Part shown: one piece after another, positions 8,822 through 19,898 of the stretch
How the letters are laid out: each line of letters opens with the position of its first letter
Numbering within the stretch: position 1 is the stretch's first letter
NCBI GenBank assembly: GCA_030949565.1
Contig: JAUZSK010000051.1
Coordinates: 62,001 to 126,000 of the forward strand
Length of the DNA: 64,000 nucleotides
Direction: 5' to 3'
DNA from: Enterobacterales bacterium
Lineage (GTDB): Bacteria; Pseudomonadota; Gammaproteobacteria; Enterobacterales; Kangiellaceae
Program-made: the position numbers and the translations under genes
Notes under the pieces: generated by a model
What the model was told of the DNA's origin: nothing
What the model saw: only the letters and a program-made list of their open reading frames with translations
Databases searched by the model: none

Positions 8822-8829
8822 CCAACTAC

Positions 8830-9222
8830 CTAGTCATCAAAAGATGCATTAAACACCTCTGAAGTTGTATCGCATATCGTCTCTATCCCATCTGCTTGAT
8901 TGTAAATGCTCATTTCAAGATGACGTGTTGTTTCATAGGGTTCTAAATTATAAATTCGGTAGTGCTCATCCTCAAAAGTTACCTTGACTCGACAATACTG
9001 GCTCCCGGTATTGTCAAAATACTGAAATCCCTCACCATTTCTAACACCAGAGACCCATTTTATATCGCCGACATAGTCGGTGGAACTTTGATTAGGATAG
9101 GACACTGAATAACCATTTTGCTTATTTAGCACATCATTTAATTGCCTTAGTTCACCGCTAGTACAACCCAACATAAAAAACAGGATAAAGACTGCGGCTA
9201 GATAATTGAAACTCGACTTCAT
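8830..9222 (-). CDS. Small lipoprotein in RAYT repeat unit, copy 1 (intact)
   Basis: Starting at the ATG at 9222 (MKSSFNYLAAVF), which has AAAGGTAA upstream, the protein is 130 residues with a lipobox (FFMLGC) and a polar mature part that I do not recognise. The track start (9276) adds an unlikely 18-residue extension. It is divergent from the HUH transposase gene, and both are duplicated together 1.74 kb away. Its association with the transposase in both units suggests a cargo or passenger gene carried by the repeat. The last residues are EVFNASFDD. Confidence 0.6.
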   Translation of the reverse strand: MKSSFNYLAAVFILFFMLGCTSGELRQLNDVLNKQNGYSVSYPNQSSTDYVGDIKWVSGVRNGEGFQYFDNTGSQYCRVKVTFEDEHYRIYNLEPYETTRHLEMSIYNQADGIETICDTTSEVFNASFDD

Positions 9223-10574
9223 AACATTACCTTTTGTTTTCATCGAAAAATACCGGACCAAAAATATAACAGACACTCAAACTATGGCTAATATCCTACA
9301 ACAATCCGGGTCAATTTCCTACACGCATTGCAGAAATAGCTTACAAAGTGAATGGCTGATTGATGATATTATTTCATTTATGGAGTTTTCTTCAAGGATG
9401 AAGCATGGCAATCAAGCGCAGTGAATTAATTGATGATGAAAACGCGGGTTATTATCACCTGATGAGTCGTTGTGTTCGGCGGACTTTTCTGTGCGGTAAA
9501 GATAAAGAAACGGGCAGAAGTTATGAACATAGAAGGCAATGGATTGAAAACCGTATATTGGAACTGGCGAATGTATTTGCCATTGAGGTTTATGCTTATG
9601 CGGTTATGAGCAACCACTATCACCTTGTCGTTTACTTTGACCCAAAAGCGCCCAATCAATTGACTGATTTAGAGGTCGCGGAGCGATGGCTAAAGGCTTA
9701 TCCTGGTAAGCTGGATAAACCCAAGTATCAACAGCAACGGGAGTTAAGGCTTCAAGCCATTATCAATAACCCTAAACAGCTAAAGACCATTAGAAACAGG
9801 CTCGGCAGCTTGTCTTGGCTCATGAGCAGAATCAATGAGCCCATTGCAAAAAAGAGTAATAAAGAGGATTTTGTCAGCGGGCATTTTTGGGAGAGTCGCT
9901 TTAAATCCCAAGCATTATTAGATGAAGCCGCCCTACTAACCTGCATGGCTTATGTCGACCTAAACCCCATTCGTGCCAACATGACTAAAACGCTGGAAGA
10001 AAGCAACCATACCAGTATTCAAAAACGAGTTAGAAACATGACGGAGGAGCAACTCAATCAAGCCGTCAAAAGCCTTTCCGGTGAAATTAAAAACCGCTCT
10101 ATGGTTTTGAAACTGAAAGATTATATCGAGCTGGTGGAATGGTGCGGAAAATCCATAGCCTACCCTAACAAATCAAAAATGCCCGCCTATATCGAGTCCA
10201 CCCTTGCTCACCTCAATCTACAACCCAATCAATGGCTCGGACAAGTACAACACTTTGGTACGCATCAAGGTTATTTCGTTGGTAAACTGATTTTACTTCA
10301 GAAAAAAGCCGAAGAGTTAAAGAAAAAATGGTTAAAAGGCTTTAAAACCTGCCGGAAATTAACGATTTAACAACACAAAAAGTAAAACCCATCATCGTAA
10401 TGCCTTTCTTAGCTATTAAGAGATTGAACCTCGCTTGAGATTCGGATAATTAAGCGATATTCAAACAAAACGCCTTCCGTCCTGAAAAAATAATTAATTT
10501 CATCACCAAACCTCAAAAAAAACGCTACTCAAGGAAGACGCCTTCTGAATTTTGACTGTCTATTATTTTTTCCC
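8831..10574. repeat. Tandem direct repeat unit 1 (lipoprotein + HUH transposase)
   Basis: About 1744 bp, followed head-to-tail by unit 2 with no spacer. The unit starts TAGTCATCAAAAGATGC and ends in the non-coding tail after the transposase. The first ~1.3 kb is essentially identical to unit 2, while the last ~450 bp (3' end of the transposase gene and tail) shows many substitutions. Confidence 0.9.
9405..10370 (+). CDS. REP-associated tyrosine transposase-like protein (Y1/HUH), copy 1
   Basis: A 321-residue protein of the IS200/IS605-related Y1_Tnp group. The N-terminus YYHLMSRCVRRTFLCG, the HUH metal-binding motif in MSNHYHLVVYF (H-Y-H) and the AYVDLNPIRANM segment with the likely catalytic tyrosine are all present. 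These enzymes nick and join single-stranded DNA at hairpins and are often domesticated as RAYTs. The start ATG has AAGGATGA upstream. The protein differs from copy 2 at about four positions (C/S, Y/H, A/S, K/Q), all near the C-terminus. It looks intact and may be active. Confidence 0.88.
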   Translation: MAIKRSELIDDENAGYYHLMSRCVRRTFLCGKDKETGRSYEHRRQWIENRILELANVFAIEVYAYAVMSNHYHLVVYFDPKAPNQLTDLEVAERWLKAYPGKLDKPKYQQQRELRLQAIINNPKQLKTIRNRLGSLSWLMSRINEPIAKKSNKEDFVSGHFWESRFKSQALLDEAALLTCMAYVDLNPIRANMTKTLEESNHTSIQKRVRNMTEEQLNQAVKSLSGEIKNRSMVLKLKDYIELVEWCGKSIAYPNKSKMPAYIESTLAHLNLQPNQWLGQVQHFGTHQGYFVGKLILLQKKAEELKKKWLKGFKTCRKLTI

Positions 10575-10964
10575 TAGTCATCAAAAGATGCATTAAACAC
10601 CTCTGAAGTTGTATCGCATATCGTCTCTATCCCATCTGCTTGATTGTAAATGCTCATTTCAAGATGACGTGTTGTTTCATAGGGTTCTAAATTATAAATT
10701 CGGTAGTGCTCATCCTCAAAAGTTACCTTGACTCGACAATACTGGCTCCGGTATTGTCAAAATACTGAAATCCTCACCATTTCTAACACCAGAGACCCAT
10801 TTTATATCGCCGACATAGTCGGTGGAACTTTGATTAGGATAGGACACTGAATAACCATTTTGCTTATTTAGCACATCATTTAATTGCCTTAGTTCACCGC
10901 TAGTACAACCCAACATAAAAAACAGGATAAAGACTGCGGCTAGATAATTGAAACTCGACTTCAT
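10574..10964 (-). pseudogene. Small lipoprotein, copy 2, frameshifted
   Basis: The gene is identical to copy 1 from its start through the lipobox and most of the mature part, but two single C deletions (CTCCCGG to CTCCGG, and TCCCTC to TCCTC, near 10745-10775) shift the frame. The track therefore shows a 100-residue product with an aberrant tail. Both indels shorten a CCC run. They may be real decay of a redundant copy or base-calling error. Confidence 0.75.
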
Positions 10965-12313
10965 AACATTACCTTTTGTTTTCATCGAAAAATACCGGAC
11001 CAAAAATATAACAGACACTCAAACTATGGCTAATATCCTACAACAATCCGGGTCAATTTCCTACACGCATTGCAGAAATAGCTTACAAAGTGAATGGCTG
11101 ATTGATGATATTATTTCATTTATGGAGTTTTCTTCAAGGATGAAGCATGGCAATCAAGCGCAGTGAATTAATTGATGATGAAAACGCGGGTTATTATCAC
11201 CTGATGAGTCGTTGTGTTCGGCGGACTTTTCTGTGCGGTAAAGATAAAGAAACGGGCAGAAGTTATGAACATAGAAGGCAATGGATTGAAAACCGTATAT
11301 TGGAACTGGCGAATGTATTTGCCATTGAGGTTTATGCTTATGCGGTTATGAGCAACCACTATCACCTTGTCGTTTACTTTGACCCAAAAGCGCCCAATCA
11401 ATTGACTGATTTAGAGGTCGCGGAGCGATGGCTAAAGGCTTATCCTGGTAAGCTGGATAAACCCAAGTATCAACAGCAACGGGAGTTAAGGCTTCAAGCC
11501 ATTATCAATAACCCTAAACAGCTAAAGACCATTAGAAACAGGCTCGGCAGCTTGTCTTGGCTCATGAGCAGAATCAATGAGCCCATTGCAAAAAAGAGTA
11601 ATAAAGAGGATTTTGTCAGCGGGCATTTTTGGGAGAGTCGCTTTAAATCCCAAGCATTATTAGATGAAGCCGCCCTACTAACCTGCATGGCTTATGTCGA
11701 CCTAAACCCCATTCGTGCCAACATGACTAAAACGCTGGAAGAAAGCAACCATACCAGTATTCAAAAACGAGTTAGAAACATGACGGAGGAGCAACTCAAT
11801 CAAGCCGTCAAAAGCCTTTCCGGTGAAATTAAAAACCGCTCTATGGTTTTGAAACTGAAAGACTATATCGAGCTGGTGGAATGGAGCGGAAAATCCATAG
11901 CCTACCCCAACAAATCAAAAATGCCCGCCCATATCGAGTCCACCCTCTCTCATCTCAATCTACAACCCAATCAATGGCTCGGACAAGTTCAACACTTTGG
12001 TACACATCAAGGTTATTTCGTTGGTAAACTGATTTTATTGCAGCAAAAAGCTGAAGAATTAAAGAAAAAATGGTTAAAAGGCTTTAAAACCTGCCGGAAA
12101 TTAACGATTTAACAACACAAAAAGTAAAACCCATCATCGTAATGCCTTTCTTAGCTCTTAGGAGATAGAGCCTCGCTTGAAATTCGGATAACTAAGCGAT
12201 ATTAAAACAAAACAGATCCCTTCCTAAAAAAATAATTAACTTCATCACCAAACTTCAAAAAAAGCGCTATTCAACGAAGATGCCTTCTGATTTCTGCCTG
12301 TCCATTATTTTTT
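10575..12313. repeat. Tandem direct repeat unit 2 (lipoprotein + HUH transposase)
   Basis: About 1739 bp, directly abutting unit 1. Its right boundary is near 12313, where similarity to the end of unit 1 (CTATTATTTTTTCC against CCATTATTTTTTGC) stops. The tail differs from that of unit 1 by many substitutions, so the two units are not a single recent perfect duplication. Confidence 0.88.
11147..12112 (+). CDS. REP-associated tyrosine transposase-like protein (Y1/HUH), copy 2
   Basis: 321 residues, nearly identical to the copy at 9405-10370, with the same HUH motif (SNHYHLV) and tyrosine-containing AYVDLNPIRA. Differences cluster in the last quarter: WSGKS in place of WCGKS, AHIES in place of AYIES, LSHLN in place of LAHLN, LLQQKAEE in place of LLQKKAEE. 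The synonymous differences also cluster there. Same start context as copy 1. Intact reading frame. Confidence 0.88.
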   Translation: MAIKRSELIDDENAGYYHLMSRCVRRTFLCGKDKETGRSYEHRRQWIENRILELANVFAIEVYAYAVMSNHYHLVVYFDPKAPNQLTDLEVAERWLKAYPGKLDKPKYQQQRELRLQAIINNPKQLKTIRNRLGSLSWLMSRINEPIAKKSNKEDFVSGHFWESRFKSQALLDEAALLTCMAYVDLNPIRANMTKTLEESNHTSIQKRVRNMTEEQLNQAVKSLSGEIKNRSMVLKLKDYIELVEWSGKSIAYPNKSKMPAHIESTLSHLNLQPNQWLGQVQHFGTHQGYFVGKLILLQQKAEELKKKWLKGFKTCRKLTI

Positions 12314-12569: not shown

Positions 12570-12595
12570 AAAGCCTAACTAAATTGCTAGGCTTT
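12570..12595 (-). terminator. Intrinsic terminator of the Rhs lipase/immunity unit
   Basis: Perfect 8-bp stem AAAGCCTA ... TAGGCTTT, followed on the minus strand by TTCATTTC. It sits 20 bp after the stop of the three-helix candidate immunity gene. Confidence 0.7.
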
Positions 12596-12615: not shown

Positions 12616-12909
12616 TTATTCTATATAAAATTTTACAGGTAACAGAGTAAATAATAAAACAGGGGCTGCGATTGTTGCCCAATATGCAATCGTTAACTTT
12701 GTTCTTTCGCTATCAAGTAAAAACGCTACAAACCAAATAATAGTTGAGATTGTGGCATAAACTCCAGCCCAGAGCACAGCGAAAGATCCAACTCCTTTTC
12801 CTGAGAAAATAAACTCCCAACCAATTATAAGTATTGCCAAAAAGTTAAGAACACTAAATGCAATCGCTAGCCAATATAGTACATTAGCTATTTTTTGTTT
12901 TTTATTCAT
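12616..12909 (-). CDS. Small three-helix membrane protein, candidate immunity to the Rhs lipase-like tip
   Basis: 97 residues with three hydrophobic segments (about 11-32, 42-63, 70-91) and little else; I recognise no named family. The ATG starts 5 nt after the stop of the Rhs gene on the same strand, with GAGGTAG at the end of that gene as a ribosome site, so translation is probably coupled. Position immediately 3' of an Rhs C-terminal toxin is where cognate immunity genes sit, and a membrane protein would suit a toxin with a lipase-like domain. Immunity function is inferred from position only. Confidence 0.6.
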   Translation of the reverse strand: MNKKQKIANVLYWLAIAFSVLNFLAILIIGWEFIFSGKGVGSFAVLWAGVYATISTIIWFVAFLLDSERTKLTIAYWATIAAPVLLFTLLPVKFYIE

Positions 12910-12914
12910 AGTAG

Positions 12915-14583
12915 CTACCTCAACCCTGATTTATAAAGATCATTTGCTAGTTCACGTCGACGACCTTGAGAAACCTTATCACCACCAGCATAATAAAAAT
13001 GCCCCGTTCCTGTCATCTGTTGATAGAATAATTTGGGTGCAGATAAAGCTACTGACAACCCACTCATTCCGGCACGAATTGGATCACCTCGACTAGTTAA
13101 ATCACGGACGAGTACATTTTTAATACCAGGAGTGTTGCGTAGAGTATTAAGAAATTCAGAAGTGATCGGAGAGCCAATGAGAACAAGGTTATCGACCGTA
13201 CCGCCTTTTTGAACACGAGTCATAGCTACATGAGCAGCGACTAAAGAACCATAAGAATATCCAACGAGATTGAGCTGTCCTTCTCCATCTCCCTTTCCTT
13301 CAAACTTCTCACGCATTGTTGTAATTTTGTCACTTACATCAACTTCTTCATTCAGTGCTAGAACACCAATGGCAGCATCAGCAGCAGAACCACCAGACCA
13401 TTCATCAGTGTTAACAGCGTGAACATCTGATATACCAGCTCCCTCTAATTGCTCAACCATATCATCAACATAATCACCATTCATTCCGGCGCCGCCAAAG
13501 AAATATGTTCCATCTTTTTTGCCAGTTGTCAGATTGGTGCCAACATCCACCTGCCCTTTTGAACCTAAATCCGTATTATCCGGCTTTAATGTTATCGGCG
13601 TTATTTTGAAAGCCCTTTCACTCCCATTGCGTGCTACCGTGTAGACATAATTACTCGACTTTCCACTCTCATCGGTTACCGTTGCAGTGATGGTTCGAGA
13701 GGTATCTCTTTTTATTCTTGAGCCTGTTGGCGCACTACGGGTTCTTGACTGGCTCGTAACTTTGACTTCTAATTTGTCTTGGTCTATATCTGCGGCGTAT
13801 CCACTCGGATCCGTCCCCGCCAATGGGTTATTCATAATGTATGAATAAGGGTTCATTGACTGTGAATTACCCGGTGCTTGTATAAAGGGATCGACACTCA
13901 AGAATCTTCCGAGGTTGTAATCATACACCCGTCCATTCATGTGGATCAACTGCGCATCGTCTAAATGTTCATGATCGGTAAAGCCGCGGTTGGTGGTCTC
14001 TGAGCCGAGAATGTTTTGTGGGATGGTGATCCCTGTTAAAACATCGGTGAAATTATCCCTTAATCGCCCATCTCGCGGCTTGCCGAAGGGATCATAACTG
14101 TGGTGTTGCAGTAGATTGCCCTGCTCATCAAAGCTGCCAATCATCGAGCCTAGTCGGTCGCGGTGAAGGTAGCGTACCTGCTCATTGGTGGTGCCGGCGA
14201 TCTGGATGACAACCGCAATATCGCCGACATAAGCTTTTTTGGTTACTTGACCATTTTGGGTGATCTGCTCGAAGTGTTTACCAATATAAATGGTCGTGGT
14301 TTCAACGCCGTTGATGGTTTTGACTTGTTTGTAGCGTAATTGATCGGCGCCATAGTAAAAACGAGAGGTATTGGCTGAACTTGTCAGCGTATCAAACGGA
14401 TTAAGCCGTTGATTGGCTGAAACGGTTATCAAACTTGGCTTGTTATAGGCATTATAAATAATTGACCGAGAGCCATCATTGGTCAGGTTGCCGTTATTAT
14501 CATAGTGGTAATGACGGATCCCTTTACCATTGGCTAACGTCACACTGCGCACCGCATTAGGACCCGCATTGCCACCCGCGGAT
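12915..14583 (-). CDS. 5'-truncated Rhs protein with lipase-like (alpha/beta hydrolase) toxin tip
   Basis: The frame is open from the break near 14583; the first ATG in frame (14552) gives 545 residues. It starts in the YD-repeat region, passes through the Rhs core (YLHRDRLGSMIGSFDEQG; YNLGRFLSVDPF; NNPLAGTDPSGYA), then an ~85-residue linker shared with the other Rhs gene. After GTNL it diverges into a tip of ~200 residues. The tip has GYSYGS (G-x-S-x-G nucleophile elbow), SRGDPI (acid) and GTGHFYY (histidine) in the order of an alpha/beta-hydrolase triad, suggesting lipase or esterase activity. The usual N-terminal half is absent: homology stops within GCGGATT, after which the DNA is unrelated. 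Likely an orphan tip module, silent unless recombined onto a full-length Rhs. Confidence 0.75.
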
Positions 14584-14735
14584 TGTTTGGTAAATCTTCA
14601 GGTTTCAATTTGGGAAAGTGAAAATAAGTTACGATGAGAAAGTGGTAAAACGGTCATAAGATCGCGAAATCGTATGACCAATAATTTGGCAATTTATACG
14701 ATAGCAATTCGGACGGCTACAATTATTGTAACCTT
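14584..14735. other. Rhs break-point flank
   Basis: Homology to the second Rhs gene ends at about 14583. The next 150 bases contain no feature I recognise. Together with 14898-15164 this is junction DNA between the orphan Rhs module and the ISKra4 remnant. Confidence 0.4.
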
Positions 14736-15164: not shown

Positions 15165-16537
15165 TCAAAATTGCCCCAATCGTACGACGTTATTAGGTGG
15201 TGCGATTGGTCTCAAGTAGACGTTTTTTATCAATTCCCAAGCATTATCTAATTGTTTGCTTAGTAAAATAGCGCGAAAGTCAAGATAGCTTGCCCTCCCT
15301 TATTTTCCCAACGTTGGCCTGACCGTTTACAGCGCATTTGTAAAACTGTTTTACAAGCTGACTCTACAATCCCTGATCCGATCGGTTTATTTTGATCGGC
15401 CAATCGCGCATATTGGCAACGTTTTTTATTTCGTGAGAAGTAGGTGATTTCAGTTTTGAGCTTTTCTTTCTTTGGATTTTTTTGAGTTGGTATTTTAGAT
15501 GATTGATGATTTTATCCACGCCTTTTTCATCGTGTCGTAAAATATGGCGATATTTTTTATGCTCTGTGATGGCTTCGACAGTGTTCTTTCCATAAATAAG
15601 TTCCATTGCATTATAAAGATGTGTAGATGCGTGGTAAAAATCGAGAACACATTCACCGTCCTTAATTTCATCACTAAAAAATGTCCAATTGTCTCGCGCA
15701 CCATCCGCGACTTTAATCATTTCAAGTTCAGGTCTCAGTTTTTTAACCTGCTCGATCTGCATCAAAAGTTGCGATTTTAACGTTTTCTTTTTATGCTCTG
15801 GCATTCTAGCGAGAAATCGAGTGTATAATAATTCACCCTGCTTATCTAAGATAACTGACCGTTCCGCAACATGCCTCATACCAGCGAGAATCGCCCGGGA
15901 GCACTTGTGCATAGCGGGTTGAAATCATCACGCCATCCAGCGAAAAAGCACACATCGTCGCTTCTTTAGGGATCTCAAAGACATCCAATAATTTTTTCTC
16001 TAAGATCAGTCGGTTAGCTTCCCAATGTTCATTGAGACTTTTAGGGAGTCTATCTAAACTACTTTTGGAGGGCGACATCAAACCAAATTCTTTAAATATT
16101 TGCTCTGAATCGGCGGGTGTATTTAAGCTGACTAAATGGATCGCTTGCTTAGCGGCTTGTGGTGTCCAAAAACCTTCAATAAGACCTGTATTGAGTTCTA
16201 AGGGGCAATGAGTTGAACCATTTCGCTCAGTACGATATAACGAACGCTCTAAGGTGACGTTACCGGCTAAGGTCATGTAGGTTTTTTTGTTTCGAGACAC
16301 TTTTTTGTAAATTTTATCGCCTGAAAAAAATGATGGATAGTTCCAATCGTATTGCTCAAGTAATTTGGCCATACACTGGCGCTCTGCTTCGGCAAATTTT
16401 TGATGAAGCTCAATCTCTAGGTTAGCAAACGCTTCTTGCTGTGTCTGATTATAGAGCGATTTCACAGAATTCGATAATTGTGTGAATAATTGTGATGTCG
16501 ATATTGTAGTTTCTGACTGAGCGTGAGATAGTGACAT
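15165..16537 (-). pseudogene. ISKra4-family transposase, broken by several frameshifts
   Basis: The N-terminal piece (start ATG 16537, AGAGGTG upstream; MSLSHAQSE) includes FFSGDKIYKKVSRNKKTYMTLAG and FSLDGVMISTR (probable first DDE aspartate). The frame then breaks near 15850, after CGTVSYL; it resumes as DKQGELLYTRFLARMPE with KVADGARDNWTF (second aspartate) and FYHASTHLYNA. It breaks again near 15440-15490, resumes as ARLADQNKPIGSGIVESACK (glutamate region) and KRSGQRWENKGGQA, and breaks once more near 15270 before the C-terminal FRAILLSKQLDNAWELI. Reassembled, this is a full-length ISKra4-type transposase. At least three single-base shifts make it inactive as written. It separates the two Rhs modules. 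Confidence 0.82.
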
Positions 16538-17065
16538 GGAAAGCACCTCTGTTAATAAAGTTTGTGTTTATTGGTGAAAACAGATGGTGCTTTTTTTATT
16601 TGAGTAATACTGTGATGGTTTGATCAAATTTGAGAAAAACTTAAGCCTAAGTGATTGATTTTATGCGCAGAGCGAGATCTGCACCCGTTTAGAGCACCTT
16701 TTCTCTACTATAAAGACAACCACCTTTCTTTTTTTGTCTGACACTACATGCCTTTAAATTCACGCTGTTCAGCCAAATTTGTCCGACAGGCAAAATCACG
16801 TGGATGGCAATTGTCCGACACATGATGCCTTATGTTTACTGGCTTGCAGGCTTTTTTTCATTAGCATCGTCAGATGCGTATGGTGTGATTAAAACTATCG
16901 GGAGATTTCAGCAACGCTGGAATCGAAAGCGGGAAGGTAAAAATAGTTTGTTCAGCAGGCTTAATCAGAATTTAATTCAATGATTAACGGATATAAAAAT
17001 GCCCTCGTTAAAGGGCAGATATTGAAAGTGAGTTAATTCAATTGGCGACCAATATTATTATGCTA
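16538..17065. other. Intergenic stretch between ISKra4 remnant and Rhs immunity gene
   Basis: About 530 bases without a supportable gene. It holds three copies of the near-palindrome TTGTCYGACA (listed separately) and short patches that look like decayed coding DNA (for example around 16860-16980) but that I cannot assign. Confidence 0.5.
16735..16820. repeat. Three copies of the palindrome TTGTCYGACA
   Basis: TTGTCTGACA at 16735, TTGTCCGACA at 16779 and at 16811. The core TGTC-N-GACA is a perfect inverted repeat. Several short transposase-binding repeats at irregular spacing are typical of the ends of complex transposons such as the IS21 or Tn7 groups. No matching transposase is visible here, so this may be an orphan element end. 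Confidence 0.45.
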
Positions 17066-17704
17066 TTAATAATGAGGATTTAAAAATTTACCTGCGTCAT
17101 CATCTAATAACGTATCGTTAAAACTTACATTTGCTCCGTGAATAGCAATCTCTCTTTTTATCAATTGCTTTCCTATAAGCACATAAACTTCCCCAACAAA
17201 CCCTTTTTTACTTTTTCTCATTTCAATTTGACTTGGCTGTAAGTCAAATTGAATAGAGTCATTTAGCCACTCTTTCACTTTTTCTTGGTTATCTATCAGT
17301 ACAAACAACTTATAAAATGGTCGAGTCAAATATAAAAACTCTCTAGCGACAGTAATAGCTTGCTCTTCATTTGAAGCTTCATTTATGAGCAATGCATTAA
17401 AGTTTTTTAATGACTCAGTTAATAAAATTATTTTTTCCGAGTTTGTTTCTTTAGCAAAAATAAAATCATGCTCATTAAACAAAGGCTCAAAACTAGTGAA
17501 CTTATAAAAGCTATAGTTATCAATAGATTCTGATGATACCAACTCTATATCATAGAGTTTTGAGCCCTTACTACTGCGTAAATAGTCCATATCATGTAAA
17601 GAACTAACAAGTGCTTCTCGCAAATCAGATTTATTCATTTTGTTAATAGCTCCAACAGAACATGAAACAATAAAAATAATAGAAAACATTAGTAAATTTT
17701 TCAT
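17066..17704 (-). CDS. Candidate immunity lipoprotein for the Rhs metallopeptidase-like tip
   Basis: Starting at the ATG at 17704 (MKNLLMFSIIFIVSCS), the protein is 212 residues with a short signal peptide and a lipobox-like IVSCS, so it should be anchored on the periplasmic side. The rest has no family I recognise. The start is 7 nt after the Rhs stop, with GGTGGT in the Rhs tail as a possible ribosome site. The track extends the ORF into the Rhs gene (to 17770), which I reject. A periplasmic lipoprotein directly after an Rhs toxin is a standard immunity arrangement. The function is inferred from context. Confidence 0.6.
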   Translation of the reverse strand: MKNLLMFSIIFIVSCSVGAINKMNKSDLREALVSSLHDMDYLRSSKGSKLYDIELVSSESIDNYSFYKFTSFEPLFNEHDFIFAKETNSEKIILLTESLKNFNALLINEASNEEQAITVAREFLYLTRPFYKLFVLIDNQEKVKEWLNDSIQFDLQPSQIEMRKSKKGFVGEVYVLIGKQLIKREIAIHGANVSFNDTLLDDDAGKFLNPHY

Positions 17705-17711
17705 AATTAAT

Positions 17712-19898
17712 TTAACCACCATTATGGTTTTTATTAACTTTATCCCAGAAATTCCCATACTTGACATCATATGTAAGCCCTGACGATGATCCTTTATAAA
17801 CTGCTTTAGGCCCTACAAACCGATCTTTAATAGTCTGTATTCTTTGTGACGAAGGCGTAGACTCCCAGCTATTTTGTCCGTAAGGCTTGGCCATAATATT
17901 TGTATTTTTTCCTAACTCAACAAAAACCTCATGACGAACAGCATCGGCCATAACTTCATTCATTACCATTCCTTCTACATACGCACTTCTTAAGGACTTT
18001 GTAGCACTAGGCCAGTTAACTTTATTTTTTACCTGAATAACATGTCCCAGTTCGTGTGCCAAACTACTAACATTTTCTTCACGTGTCCCGCCCTTAAAAA
18101 GATGAATGGTATCCGTATTAGGATCGTAGTAAGCACCTTTCGCACTATCAATCGAAATTTTTGGTGTATAAATATCTAGAATAGCTTCAGCAGTTGCGCT
18201 TGCAGATATATCCTTAATCAAGTCTTGTGAAGTATAAGTAGGGCTTGTAGTTTTATTTGCGGAGGCTGAAGTTGGAGCATCAACGCTACTCAGATTGGTG
18301 CCAACACCCACCTGCCCTTTTGAACCTAAATCCGTATTATCCAGCTTTAACGCTATCGGCGTTATTTTGAAAGCGCTTTCACTCCCATTGCGTGCTGCCG
18401 TGTAGACATAATTACTCGACTTTCCACTCTCATCGGTTACCGTTGCAGTGATGGTTCGAGAGGTATCTCTTTTTATTCTTGAGCCTGTTGGCGCACTACG
18501 GGTTCTTGATTGGCTCGTAACTTTGACTTCTAATTTGTCTTGGTCTATATCTGCGGCGTATCCACTCGGATCCGTCCCCGCCAATGGGTTATTCATAATA
18601 TACGAATAAGGGTTCATTGACTGTGAATTACCCGGTGCTTGTATAAAGGGATCGACACTCAAAAACCGTCCGAGGTTGTAATCATACACCCGTCCATTCA
18701 TATGGATCAACTGCGCATCGTCTAAATGTTCATGATCGGTAAAGCCACGGTTGGTGGTCTCTGAACCGAGGATATTTGCACCGATAGGCTGACTGAGAGC
18801 ATTGCTGGTTAAGTTATAGGTGAAATTATCCCTTAATCGTCCATCTCGCGGCTTGCCGAAGGGATCATAACTGTGGTGTTGCAGTAGATTGCCCTGCTCA
18901 TCAAAGCTGCCAATCATGGAGCTTAGTCGGTCGCGGTGAAGGTAGCGTACCTGCTCATTGGTGGTGCCGGCGATCTGGATGACAACCGCAATATCGCCGA
19001 CATAAGCTTTTTTGGTTACTTGACCATTTTGGGTGATCTGCTCGAAGTGTTTACCAATATAAATGGTCGTGGTTTCAACGCCGTTGATGGATTTGACTTG
19101 TTTATAGCGTAATTGATCGGCGCCATAGTAAAAACGAGAGGTATTGGCTGAACTTGTGAGCGTATCAAACGGATTAAGCCGTTGATTGGCTGAAACGGTT
19201 ATCAAACTTGGCTTGTTATAGGCATTATAAATAATTGACCGAGAGCCATCATTGGTCAGGTTGCCGTTATTATCATAGTGGTAATGACGGATCCCTTTAC
19301 CATTGGCTAACGTCACACTGCGCACCGCATTAGGACCCGCATTGCCACCCGCGGATTTAGCCTGATTGCCCTGTTGATAGGCGTTGACGGATTGCACTGA
19401 AAAATCTGACTTATATCGAAAGTTACCCACCGCATCGTAGGCGTAGTTGTATTCATTATAACTGCCGTTATCAAACACTACATTGGAGCGAATTAAGCGG
19501 TGTAAATCATCATAGGCATAACTTTCCGTATCGATGGTGAAGGTATTGCCCCCTTGGTTACCCATTTGCATTTGAGTTAAATTACCAAAAACATCATAAC
19601 CTCCGGCATAACTCGCTGATTGTTGCAAACCACTTGCATTTCGAACCTCGGTGCTCACCATTTGACCCGTTTCGGGATGATAGCGTCGGTTTAACTCAAA
19701 GGCTTGATTCGACTGGAGAGCTTTGGTCCATTGCCCCGAGTAATCTTGACTCAGGATCTCTCTATAAACCGTGCCCTTTAATGCGTCTTTGGTCAGTACC
19801 TGTTGACCGCGCTCATTGTACTGATATTCAACCACGAGACCATTGGGATAAATCAAGCCTTTAAGCCGGTTATAGCCATTATCAAAAAGTGACTGCAT
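17712..19898 (-). CDS. Rhs-repeat protein with HELGH metallopeptidase-like toxin tip (5'-truncated)
   Basis: 728 residues. YD/RHS repeats fill the N-terminal half (LIYPNGLVVEYQYNERG; LIRSNVVFDNGSYNEYNYAYD), then the Rhs core (YLHRDRLSSMIGSFDEQG, YNLGRFLSVDPF, NNPLAGTDPSGYA), then an ~85-residue linker shared with the other Rhs gene. After GTNL comes a unique ~190-residue tip with a zincin signature: SSLAHELGHVIQ (HExxH) and a downstream NEVMADAV supplying a third acidic ligand. It should be a zinc-dependent protease or related hydrolase effector. The frame stays open ~60 nt upstream of the first ATG and Rhs-like residues continue there, so the gene is probably cut off at its 5' end near 19940-19965, without the usual PAAR, membrane or plug N-terminus. 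Confidence 0.78.
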   Translation of the reverse strand: MQSLFDNGYNRLKGLIYPNGLVVEYQYNERGQQVLTKDALKGTVYREILSQDYSGQWTKALQSNQAFELNRRYHPETGQMVSTEVRNASGLQQSASYAGGYDVFGNLTQMQMGNQGGNTFTIDTESYAYDDLHRLIRSNVVFDNGSYNEYNYAYDAVGNFRYKSDFSVQSVNAYQQGNQAKSAGGNAGPNAVRSVTLANGKGIRHYHYDNNGNLTNDGSRSIIYNAYNKPSLITVSANQRLNPFDTLTSSANTSRFYYGADQLRYKQVKSINGVETTTIYIGKHFEQITQNGQVTKKAYVGDIAVVIQIAGTTNEQVRYLHRDRLSSMIGSFDEQGNLLQHHSYDPFGKPRDGRLRDNFTYNLTSNALSQPIGANILGSETTNRGFTDHEHLDDAQLIHMNGRVYDYNLGRFLSVDPFIQAPGNSQSMNPYSYIMNNPLAGTDPSGYAADIDQDKLEVKVTSQSRTRSAPTGSRIKRDTSRTITATVTDESGKSSNYVYTAARNGSESAFKITPIALKLDNTDLGSKGQVGVGTNLSSVDAPTSASANKTTSPTYTSQDLIKDISASATAEAILDIYTPKISIDSAKGAYYDPNTDTIHLFKGGTREENVSSLAHELGHVIQVKNKVNWPSATKSLRSAYVEGMVMNEVMADAVRHEVFVELGKNTNIMAKPYGQNSWESTPSSQRIQTIKDRFVGPKAVYKGSSSGLTYDVKYGNFWDKVNKNHNGG

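What the first reader, a model, noticed from the sequence alone, without database searches (positions are those of the whole stretch)
12616..14552. Rhs toxin tip with a complete lipase-like triad and a three-helix membrane partner
The variable C-terminus after the shared linker contains GYSYGS, then SRGDPI, then GTGHFYY, in alpha/beta-hydrolase order, in a ~200-residue tip. A 97-residue three-helix protein starts 5 nt after it. A lipase or phospholipase effector guarded by a membrane-embedded immunity protein would be a distinctive toxin/antidote pair.
Basis: partly seen in the sequence, partly recalled or inferred. Interest (0 to 1): 0.75.

Follow-up and report, generated by a model that had tools for sequence, protein, structure and literature searches.

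The report
Detached Rhs lipase-like toxin with membrane antidote
The window holds a detached piece of a bacterial weapon gene whose tip is a small lipase-like enzyme followed by a three-helix membrane protein; the same pair sits on unrelated delivery machines in dozens of bacteria and is most likely a membrane-attacking toxin with its antidote, a pairing that curated protein-family libraries do not yet name.

Summary
Observation confirmed: a 204-residue tip (window 12918-13529, minus) carries GYSYGS, SRGDPI and GTGHFYY in alpha/beta-hydrolase order; a 97-aa protein follows 5 nt later. The tip belongs to a family (45 aligned homologues) in which S92, D149, H177 and a GGAG turn are invariant. 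AlphaFold2 (pLDDT 85) gives a minimal alpha/beta hydrolase; nearest solved folds include cutinase and B. subtilis LipA. In 42 of 48 loci the next gene encodes a small protein with at least two predicted membrane helices, usually three (26/33 against 4/162 for other ORFs, p about 1e-21). The pair occurs on Rhs proteins, beside or fused to PAAR proteins, inside T6SS operons and inside Mu-like tail operons: a mobile toxin/immunity module. Correction: here the gene is a 5'-truncated orphan rhs-CT/immunity cassette without a ribosome site; a Sec-exported master rhs gene lies elsewhere in the genome, in which no VipB or PAAR was detected. Known separately: Rhs orphans, alpha/beta-hydrolase toxins, and one phospholipase effector with a two-TM immunity protein. 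New here, as far as tested: this family and its three-TM partner. Substrate and protection remain inferred.

The parts
12918..13529 (-). Rhs-CT tip: minimal alpha/beta-hydrolase toxin domain (204 aa)
   Evidence: Pfam Abhydrolase_8 24.4 bits against cut-off 20.5; AF2 pLDDT 84.9, pTM 0.85; Foldseek to cutinase and LipA, E 1e-4 to 1e-3; 45-member family
13485..13496 (-). GGAG turn after strand 1, candidate oxyanion-hole loop (tip residues 12-15)
   Evidence: invariant in 45/45; after strand 7-11 in the model
13245..13262 (-). nucleophile elbow GYSYGS, Ser92 of the tip at 13254-13256
   Evidence: Ser invariant in 45/45; lies between strand 86-91 and helix 93-107 in the model
13077..13094 (-). SRGDPI, candidate catalytic Asp149 at 13083-13085
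   Evidence: Asp invariant in 45/45; follows strand 136-142
12990..13010 (-). GTGHFYY, candidate catalytic His177 at 12999-13001
   Evidence: His invariant in 45/45
12616..12909 (-). 97-aa three-helix membrane protein, candidate immunity protein
   Evidence: three hydrophobic segments; AF2 pLDDT 91.5; GAGGT ribosome-site-like sequence before its ATG; adjacent homologues or analogues at 42 of 48 loci
13530..14584 (-). truncated Rhs core plus shared linker, 98% identical to the master rhs gene at G000:C8
   Evidence: TIGR03696 57.6 bits; blastn 14584-13535 at 98.1% to C8 and 97.8% to C61; 14584-13529 at 96.0% to the neighbouring window cassette
14581..14600 (-). junction where rhs homology stops; in-frame TGA 15 codons before the GTG
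   Evidence: (open frame 560)
12570..12595 (-). terminator-like hairpin closing the cassette (10-pair stem, T run)
   Evidence: consensus scan; count not above shuffles, so suggestive only

Best explanation
This is an orphan rhs-CT/immunity cassette. Its toxin is a lidless, cutinase/LipA-sized serine hydrolase (Ser92-Asp149-His177) that most likely attacks membrane lipids of rival bacteria from the periplasmic face of the inner membrane. Its antidote is a three-helix inner-membrane protein whose conserved first loop and C-terminus face the periplasm and block the enzyme there. The cassette itself cannot start translation of the toxin; the antidote has its own ribosome site. The toxin would be used only after homologous recombination of the 1-kb shared rhs segment into the Sec-exported master rhs gene, as shown for Salmonella orphan rhs. 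Shown here: homology, fold prediction, invariant triad, gene coupling, module mobility, truncation, purifying selection. Inferred: lipid substrate, periplasmic site, protection, recombination into use.
For: Family with invariant S/D/H and GGAG in 45 members. Fold and nearest structures. Small membrane protein directly downstream: 26/33 against 4/162, Fisher p 6.6e-22; 42/48 loci, many overlapping by 1-4 nt. K/R distribution favours N-in for 22 of 31 three-segment proteins, 5 against, 4 ties. Same module on Rhs proteins, PAAR-fused and PAAR-adjacent, in a T6SS VipB-gp25-PAAR operon and in a Mu-like tail operon. On the tip tree the Rhs label alone needs 4 changes, at least 3 forced by well-supported branches. 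Tip dN 0.17-0.19 with saturated dS, partner dN 0.33-0.35. The tip ends a long (at least 2190 aa) Rhs protein in Rheinheimera (L012). Orphan precedent PMC3967940; membrane immunity guarding a periplasm-active phospholipase: PMC12994826.
Against: No enzyme or protection data. Cutinase-like folds also hydrolyse thioesters, polyesters and other acyl substrates; sequence-profile hits to the PDB are weak (E 0.015 at best). TM-scores to cutinase are only 0.38-0.49, partly because residues 41-80 are modelled with low confidence. The partner has no detectable fold relative. A few members lack an obvious membrane partner (L015, L023; L039 lies near a contig end). The genome is a 94-contig draft, so absence of T6SS genes is not absolute.
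Confidence: 0.66

Rival explanations
1. The tip is a serine hydrolase toxin but not a phospholipase: it cleaves another acyl substrate (thioester, lipoprotein or lipid-linked precursor) and the membrane protein protects by blocking entry or a membrane docking site.
For: Pfam Thioesterase scores about as high as Abhydrolase_8; TesA and other thioesterase domains are among the best Foldseek matches; Zhang et al. 2012 left the substrate of Tox-ABhydrolase-2 open.
Against: Membrane-embedded partners nearly everywhere point to a target at the membrane; lidless lipases and cutinases dominate the fold matches.
Confidence: 0.22
2. The three-helix protein is not an immunity protein but a helper of the hydrolase, such as a membrane anchor, foldase or permeabiliser.
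For: Coupling is as strong as for any obligate partner; phage-tail loci would allow a lysis role.
Against: The partner is encoded next to PAAR- and Rhs-borne cargo, the normal place of immunity genes; it evolves faster than the enzyme, as immunity proteins do; some family members do without it.
Confidence: 0.08
3. The cassette is a decaying relic with no present function.
For: No start-codon context, no promoter signal beyond chance, flanked by a broken ISKra4-like transposase and duplicated REP-associated transposase copies.
Against: Both reading frames are intact; strong purifying selection between species (which does not date when the window copy was detached); the shared rhs DNA is 98% identical to the master gene; the partner keeps a ribosome site.
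Confidence: 0.12

Closest known systems
Orphan rhs-CT/rhsI modules (Dickeya, Salmonella; PMC3150448, PMC3967940)
   Same: 5'-truncated rhs fragment with tip and small downstream gene, no translation start, shared near-identical DNA with a main rhs gene
   Different: there they lie downstream of the main gene; here cassettes are also scattered over several other contigs, some beside REP-associated transposases
Tox-ABhydrolase-1, -2 and -3 (Zhang et al. 2012, PMC3482391)
   Same: alpha/beta-hydrolase toxin domains at the C-terminus of polymorphic toxins
   Different: type 1 is DUF2235, which is not detected here; the paper's table ties types 2 and 3 to soluble immunity families such as SUKH, not three-helix membrane proteins; whether our family is type 2 could not be tested
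T6SS phospholipase effectors Tle1-4
   Same: GxSxG serine hydrolases with an immunity gene nearby; some of our relatives are in T6SS operons
   Different: no Tle-type Pfam family or Tle structure is matched; the domain is about 200 aa; the described Tle immunity proteins that I read about are lipoproteins or soluble (PMC13133936, PMC9860674), not three-helix membrane proteins
Tox-Act1/Imm-Act1 (PMC12994826)
   Same: phospholipase toxin active from the periplasm, with an immunity protein embedded in the membrane
   Different: papain-like NlpC/P60 fold and two TM helices
Colicin E1-type immunity proteins such as ImS5 (described in PMC9846239)
   Same: small three-helix inner-membrane immunity protein
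   Different: they guard against pore-forming toxins, not hydrolases; no homology found

Membership tests
Rhs polymorphic toxin (C-terminal tip) | Rhs-associated core domain before a variable tip | tested here: met
   TIGR03696 57.6 bits, cut-off 32.5; the same core carries different tips at other loci of the genome
Rhs polymorphic toxin (C-terminal tip) | complete, exportable carrier protein | tested here: not met
   rhs homology stops at 14584; a full-length carrier exists elsewhere in the genome and in Rheinheimera L012
Orphan rhs-CT/immunity module | truncated rhs fragment without translation start, plus small downstream gene | tested here: met
   stop 15 codons before the GTG, no Shine-Dalgarno
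Orphan rhs-CT/immunity module | near-identical DNA shared with a main rhs gene, allowing recombination | tested here: met
   1053 bp at 98.1% identity to G000:C8
Orphan rhs-CT/immunity module | cognate immunity neutralises the toxin | not testable with these tools
   needs expression
Alpha/beta-hydrolase fold serine hydrolase | parallel sheet with nucleophile elbow and Ser-Asp-His in order | tested here: met
   model, fold matches, invariance; triad distances were not measured
Pfam Abhydrolase_8 (PF06259) | score above the curated cut-off | tested here: inconclusive
   window tip 24.4 against 20.5, but only residues 41-122, and several relatives fall below
T6SS lipase effectors Tle1-4 | membership of a Tle sequence family | tested here: not met
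   no such Pfam match in 22 members; no Tle chain among PDB hits
T6SS lipase effectors Tle1-4 | T6SS in the genome | tested here: not met
   no VipB or PAAR match in G000; met for relatives such as L042
Tox-ABhydrolase-2 (Zhang 2012) | sequence membership | not testable with these tools
   alignment is in a supplementary file that is not held

The most novel reading that the evidence does not exclude
One small lipase-like toxin with an integral-membrane antidote forms a portable module used by three kinds of delivery machine: Sec-exported Rhs proteins, T6SS PAAR spikes and Mu-like phage tail spikes. The antidote works inside the bilayer by shielding the enzyme's lipid access site, an inhibition mode that I did not find described for alpha/beta-hydrolase toxins.
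Probability: 0.35. Interest if true: 0.75.

Novelty: new variant of a known kind. Interest (0 to 1): 0.56.

Why it matters
It defines a testable lipase-like toxin family that curated Pfam, NCBIfam, PADLOC and PHROGs models do not name, with a consistent membrane antidote. If the antidote works within the membrane, it would be a second example, with an unrelated toxin fold, of guarding membrane lipids at the bilayer rather than by a soluble inhibitor. Its presence on Rhs, T6SS and Mu-like tail spikes shows one payload moving between delivery machines.

Tried and rejected
Tip as a member of Tle1-4: no Pfam or PDB support. T6SS delivery in this genome: no VipB or PAAR. Tip relatives in annotated phages: none by tblastn, though viral contigs gave five. 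PADLOC: nothing for the window pair; one weak family hit in one of 45 members. NCBIfam has no model for the tip. PHROGs: nothing for either protein. Solved-structure or Pfam relatives of the three-helix protein: none convincing. Relatives of the tip in the 39 other genomes of the same family: none. Within the class, 3 of 369 genomes including this one: the module is rare. Promoter scan: no excess over shuffles.

Full report
OBSERVATION. Comparison with the other rhs copies of the genome shows that shared DNA ends at 13529-13535, so the variable tip is 204 residues. It contains GGAG (residues 12-15), GYSYGS (90-95), SRGDPI (146-151) and GTGHFYY (174-180).

A REAL FAMILY. tblastn found two plasmid relatives, 39-41% identical, in Moraxella bovis and Cupriavidus campinensis. 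Their alignment was used to scan genomes (42 loci) and viral contigs (5 loci). In the 45-row alignment Ser92, Asp149, His177, the GGAG turn, Asn87, Gly90-Tyr91 and Asp51 are invariant. The Ser-to-Asp distance is the same in nearly all members. From general knowledge, the Ser-Asp-His spacing (57 and 28 residues) is close to that of B. subtilis LipA (S77, D133, H156). The motif order is therefore a conserved active site, not a chance GxSxG.

FOLD. AlphaFold2 with 43 rows gave mean pLDDT 84.9 and pTM 0.85. Strands 7-11, 36-38, 86-91, 112-118 and 136-142 alternate with helices; Ser92 sits exactly between strand 86-91 and helix 93-107, Asp149 follows the last strand, His177 precedes the last helix. 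Residues 41-80 are poorly determined. Foldseek against the PDB returned Legionella RavL, TesA thioesterase, B. subtilis lipase A and many cutinases at E 1.7e-4 to 1e-3, probability about 1, TM 0.35-0.49. Pfam Abhydrolase_8 passes its cut-off for the window tip, with Thioesterase, Abhydrolase_1 and PGAP1 just under theirs. The triad distances could not be measured because coordinates are not exposed.

THE PARTNER. The 97-aa protein is predicted as three long helices plus a short one, pLDDT 91.5, with no fold relative in the PDB. In 42 of 48 distinct loci the gene directly after the hydrolase encodes a protein of 82-149 aa with at least two hydrophobic segments, usually three; many pairs overlap by 1-4 nt. 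With crude gene calls as a control, 26 of 33 hydrolase genes but 4 of 162 other close gene pairs have such a neighbour. The control uses ORFs, not annotated genes, so the rate is approximate. Four partners of the nearest relatives are clearly homologous (42-58% identity) and others much less so (20-27%). Positive charges favour N-in in 22 of 31, which would place the conserved FI-xGxGxGxF loop and the C-terminal PxKF on the periplasmic side.

DELIVERY CONTEXTS. The hydrolase is the tip of an Rhs protein with SpvB, FG-GAP and TcdB-type domains in Rheinheimera and of an Rhs/FG-GAP protein in a viral contig, and of a signal-peptide-bearing Rhs protein in Moraxella. It is fused to PAAR (L021, L036) or encoded right after a PAAR gene (L032, L041, L057, L029, L042). 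L042 lies in a T6SS operon with VipB and gp25, and L045, L047 and L050 look the same by sequence. In Haematospirillum (L021) and Azospirillum (L023) a PAAR or PAAR-like hydrolase gene sits between the spike gene and baseplate-wedge genes of a Mu-like contractile tail, with hub proteins upstream. On the tip tree the Rhs label alone needs 4 changes, at least 3 of them forced by well-supported branches, and all five context labels together need 14 (the labels include an unassigned class). The module moves between carriers.

THE LOCUS ITSELF. The window copy is not a complete gene. Rhs homology begins at 14584 in all three closest comparisons; the reading frame opens only 15 codons before the GTG; there is no Shine-Dalgarno sequence before the GTG, while the antidote's ATG is preceded by GAGGT. 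The same core with other tips occurs on contigs C8, C10, C35, C61 and C93 and a second time in the window. The apparent master gene at C8 (about 18.9-25.4 kb) has a Sec-like signal sequence, SpvB, FG-GAP, TcdB mid-region and RHS repeats. VipB and PAAR were not found in the genome, so T6SS delivery is unlikely here. This matches orphan rhs-CT/rhsI modules of Salmonella and Dickeya, where recombination with the main gene brings an orphan toxin into use (PMC3967940, PMC3150448). The tip is under purifying selection between species (dN 0.17-0.19 with saturated dS), and the antidote evolves about twice as fast.

MECHANISM. Most likely a lipid-directed serine hydrolase acting at the inner membrane of a rival cell, neutralised in kin by a membrane-embedded inhibitor. 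Steps shown: active-site conservation, predicted fold, gene coupling, modular delivery, truncation. Steps inferred: substrate, compartment, inhibition, recombinational activation. Tox-Act1/Imm-Act1 (PMC12994826) is a direct precedent for a phospholipase toxin with a membrane-embedded antidote, but with an unrelated fold; described Tle antidotes are lipoproteins or soluble (PMC13133936, PMC9860674).

NOVELTY. Alpha/beta-hydrolase tips of polymorphic toxins were predicted in 2012 as Tox-ABhydrolase-1 to -3 (PMC3482391). Type 1 is DUF2235 and not this family; whether this is type 2 could not be tested because the alignment is in a supplement. No Pfam, NCBIfam, PHROGs or PADLOC model names the family or its partner. 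I rate it a new variant of a known kind.

Noticed in passing
window 17066-19898 (-): A second orphan rhs cassette with the same core but a zincin-like tip containing HELGH (Pfam DUF6782 4e-6, Zn_peptidase_2 3e-5) and a 234-aa downstream protein that looks like a lipoprotein: a possible peptidase toxin with a periplasmic antidote.
   Followed up: partly
window 8829-12313: A 1.74-kb tandem duplication (97.8% identical) of a small lipoprotein gene plus a REP-associated tyrosine transposase (Y1) gene. The same transposase lies beside other rhs cassettes of the genome (C8, C35).
   Followed up: partly
window 15364-16546 (-): ISKra4-like transposase split into two overlapping frames, directly 5' of the orphan cassette; probably inactive.
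   Followed up: no
L021:615-10505 and L023:2824-8278: PAAR(-like)-hydrolase genes inside Mu-like tail operons (tape measure, hub, spike, wedge, fiber). L021 has a 125-aa membrane partner; L023 has none. Possibly a phage or tailocin spike that carries a lipase-like payload.
   Followed up: partly
L042:59-3373, also L045, L047, L050: Pseudomonas-type T6SS operons in which VipB, gp25-like and PAAR genes are followed by this hydrolase (with an insert of about 60 residues) and a membrane partner.
   Followed up: partly
L059 (G000:C8:15001-35000): Master rhs gene followed by several further core-plus-tip cassettes with small downstream genes; its reading frame is broken near the end of the core, either an assembly fault or a real frameshift.
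   Followed up: no
L011:4592-5621: Cupriavidus campinensis plasmid copy in which the PAAR part and the hydrolase part are in different frames; a related strain has one fused frame (L036).
   Followed up: no
L053:3846-6606: Phenylobacterium member of the family encoded just after a P22-like portal protein gene.
   Followed up: no
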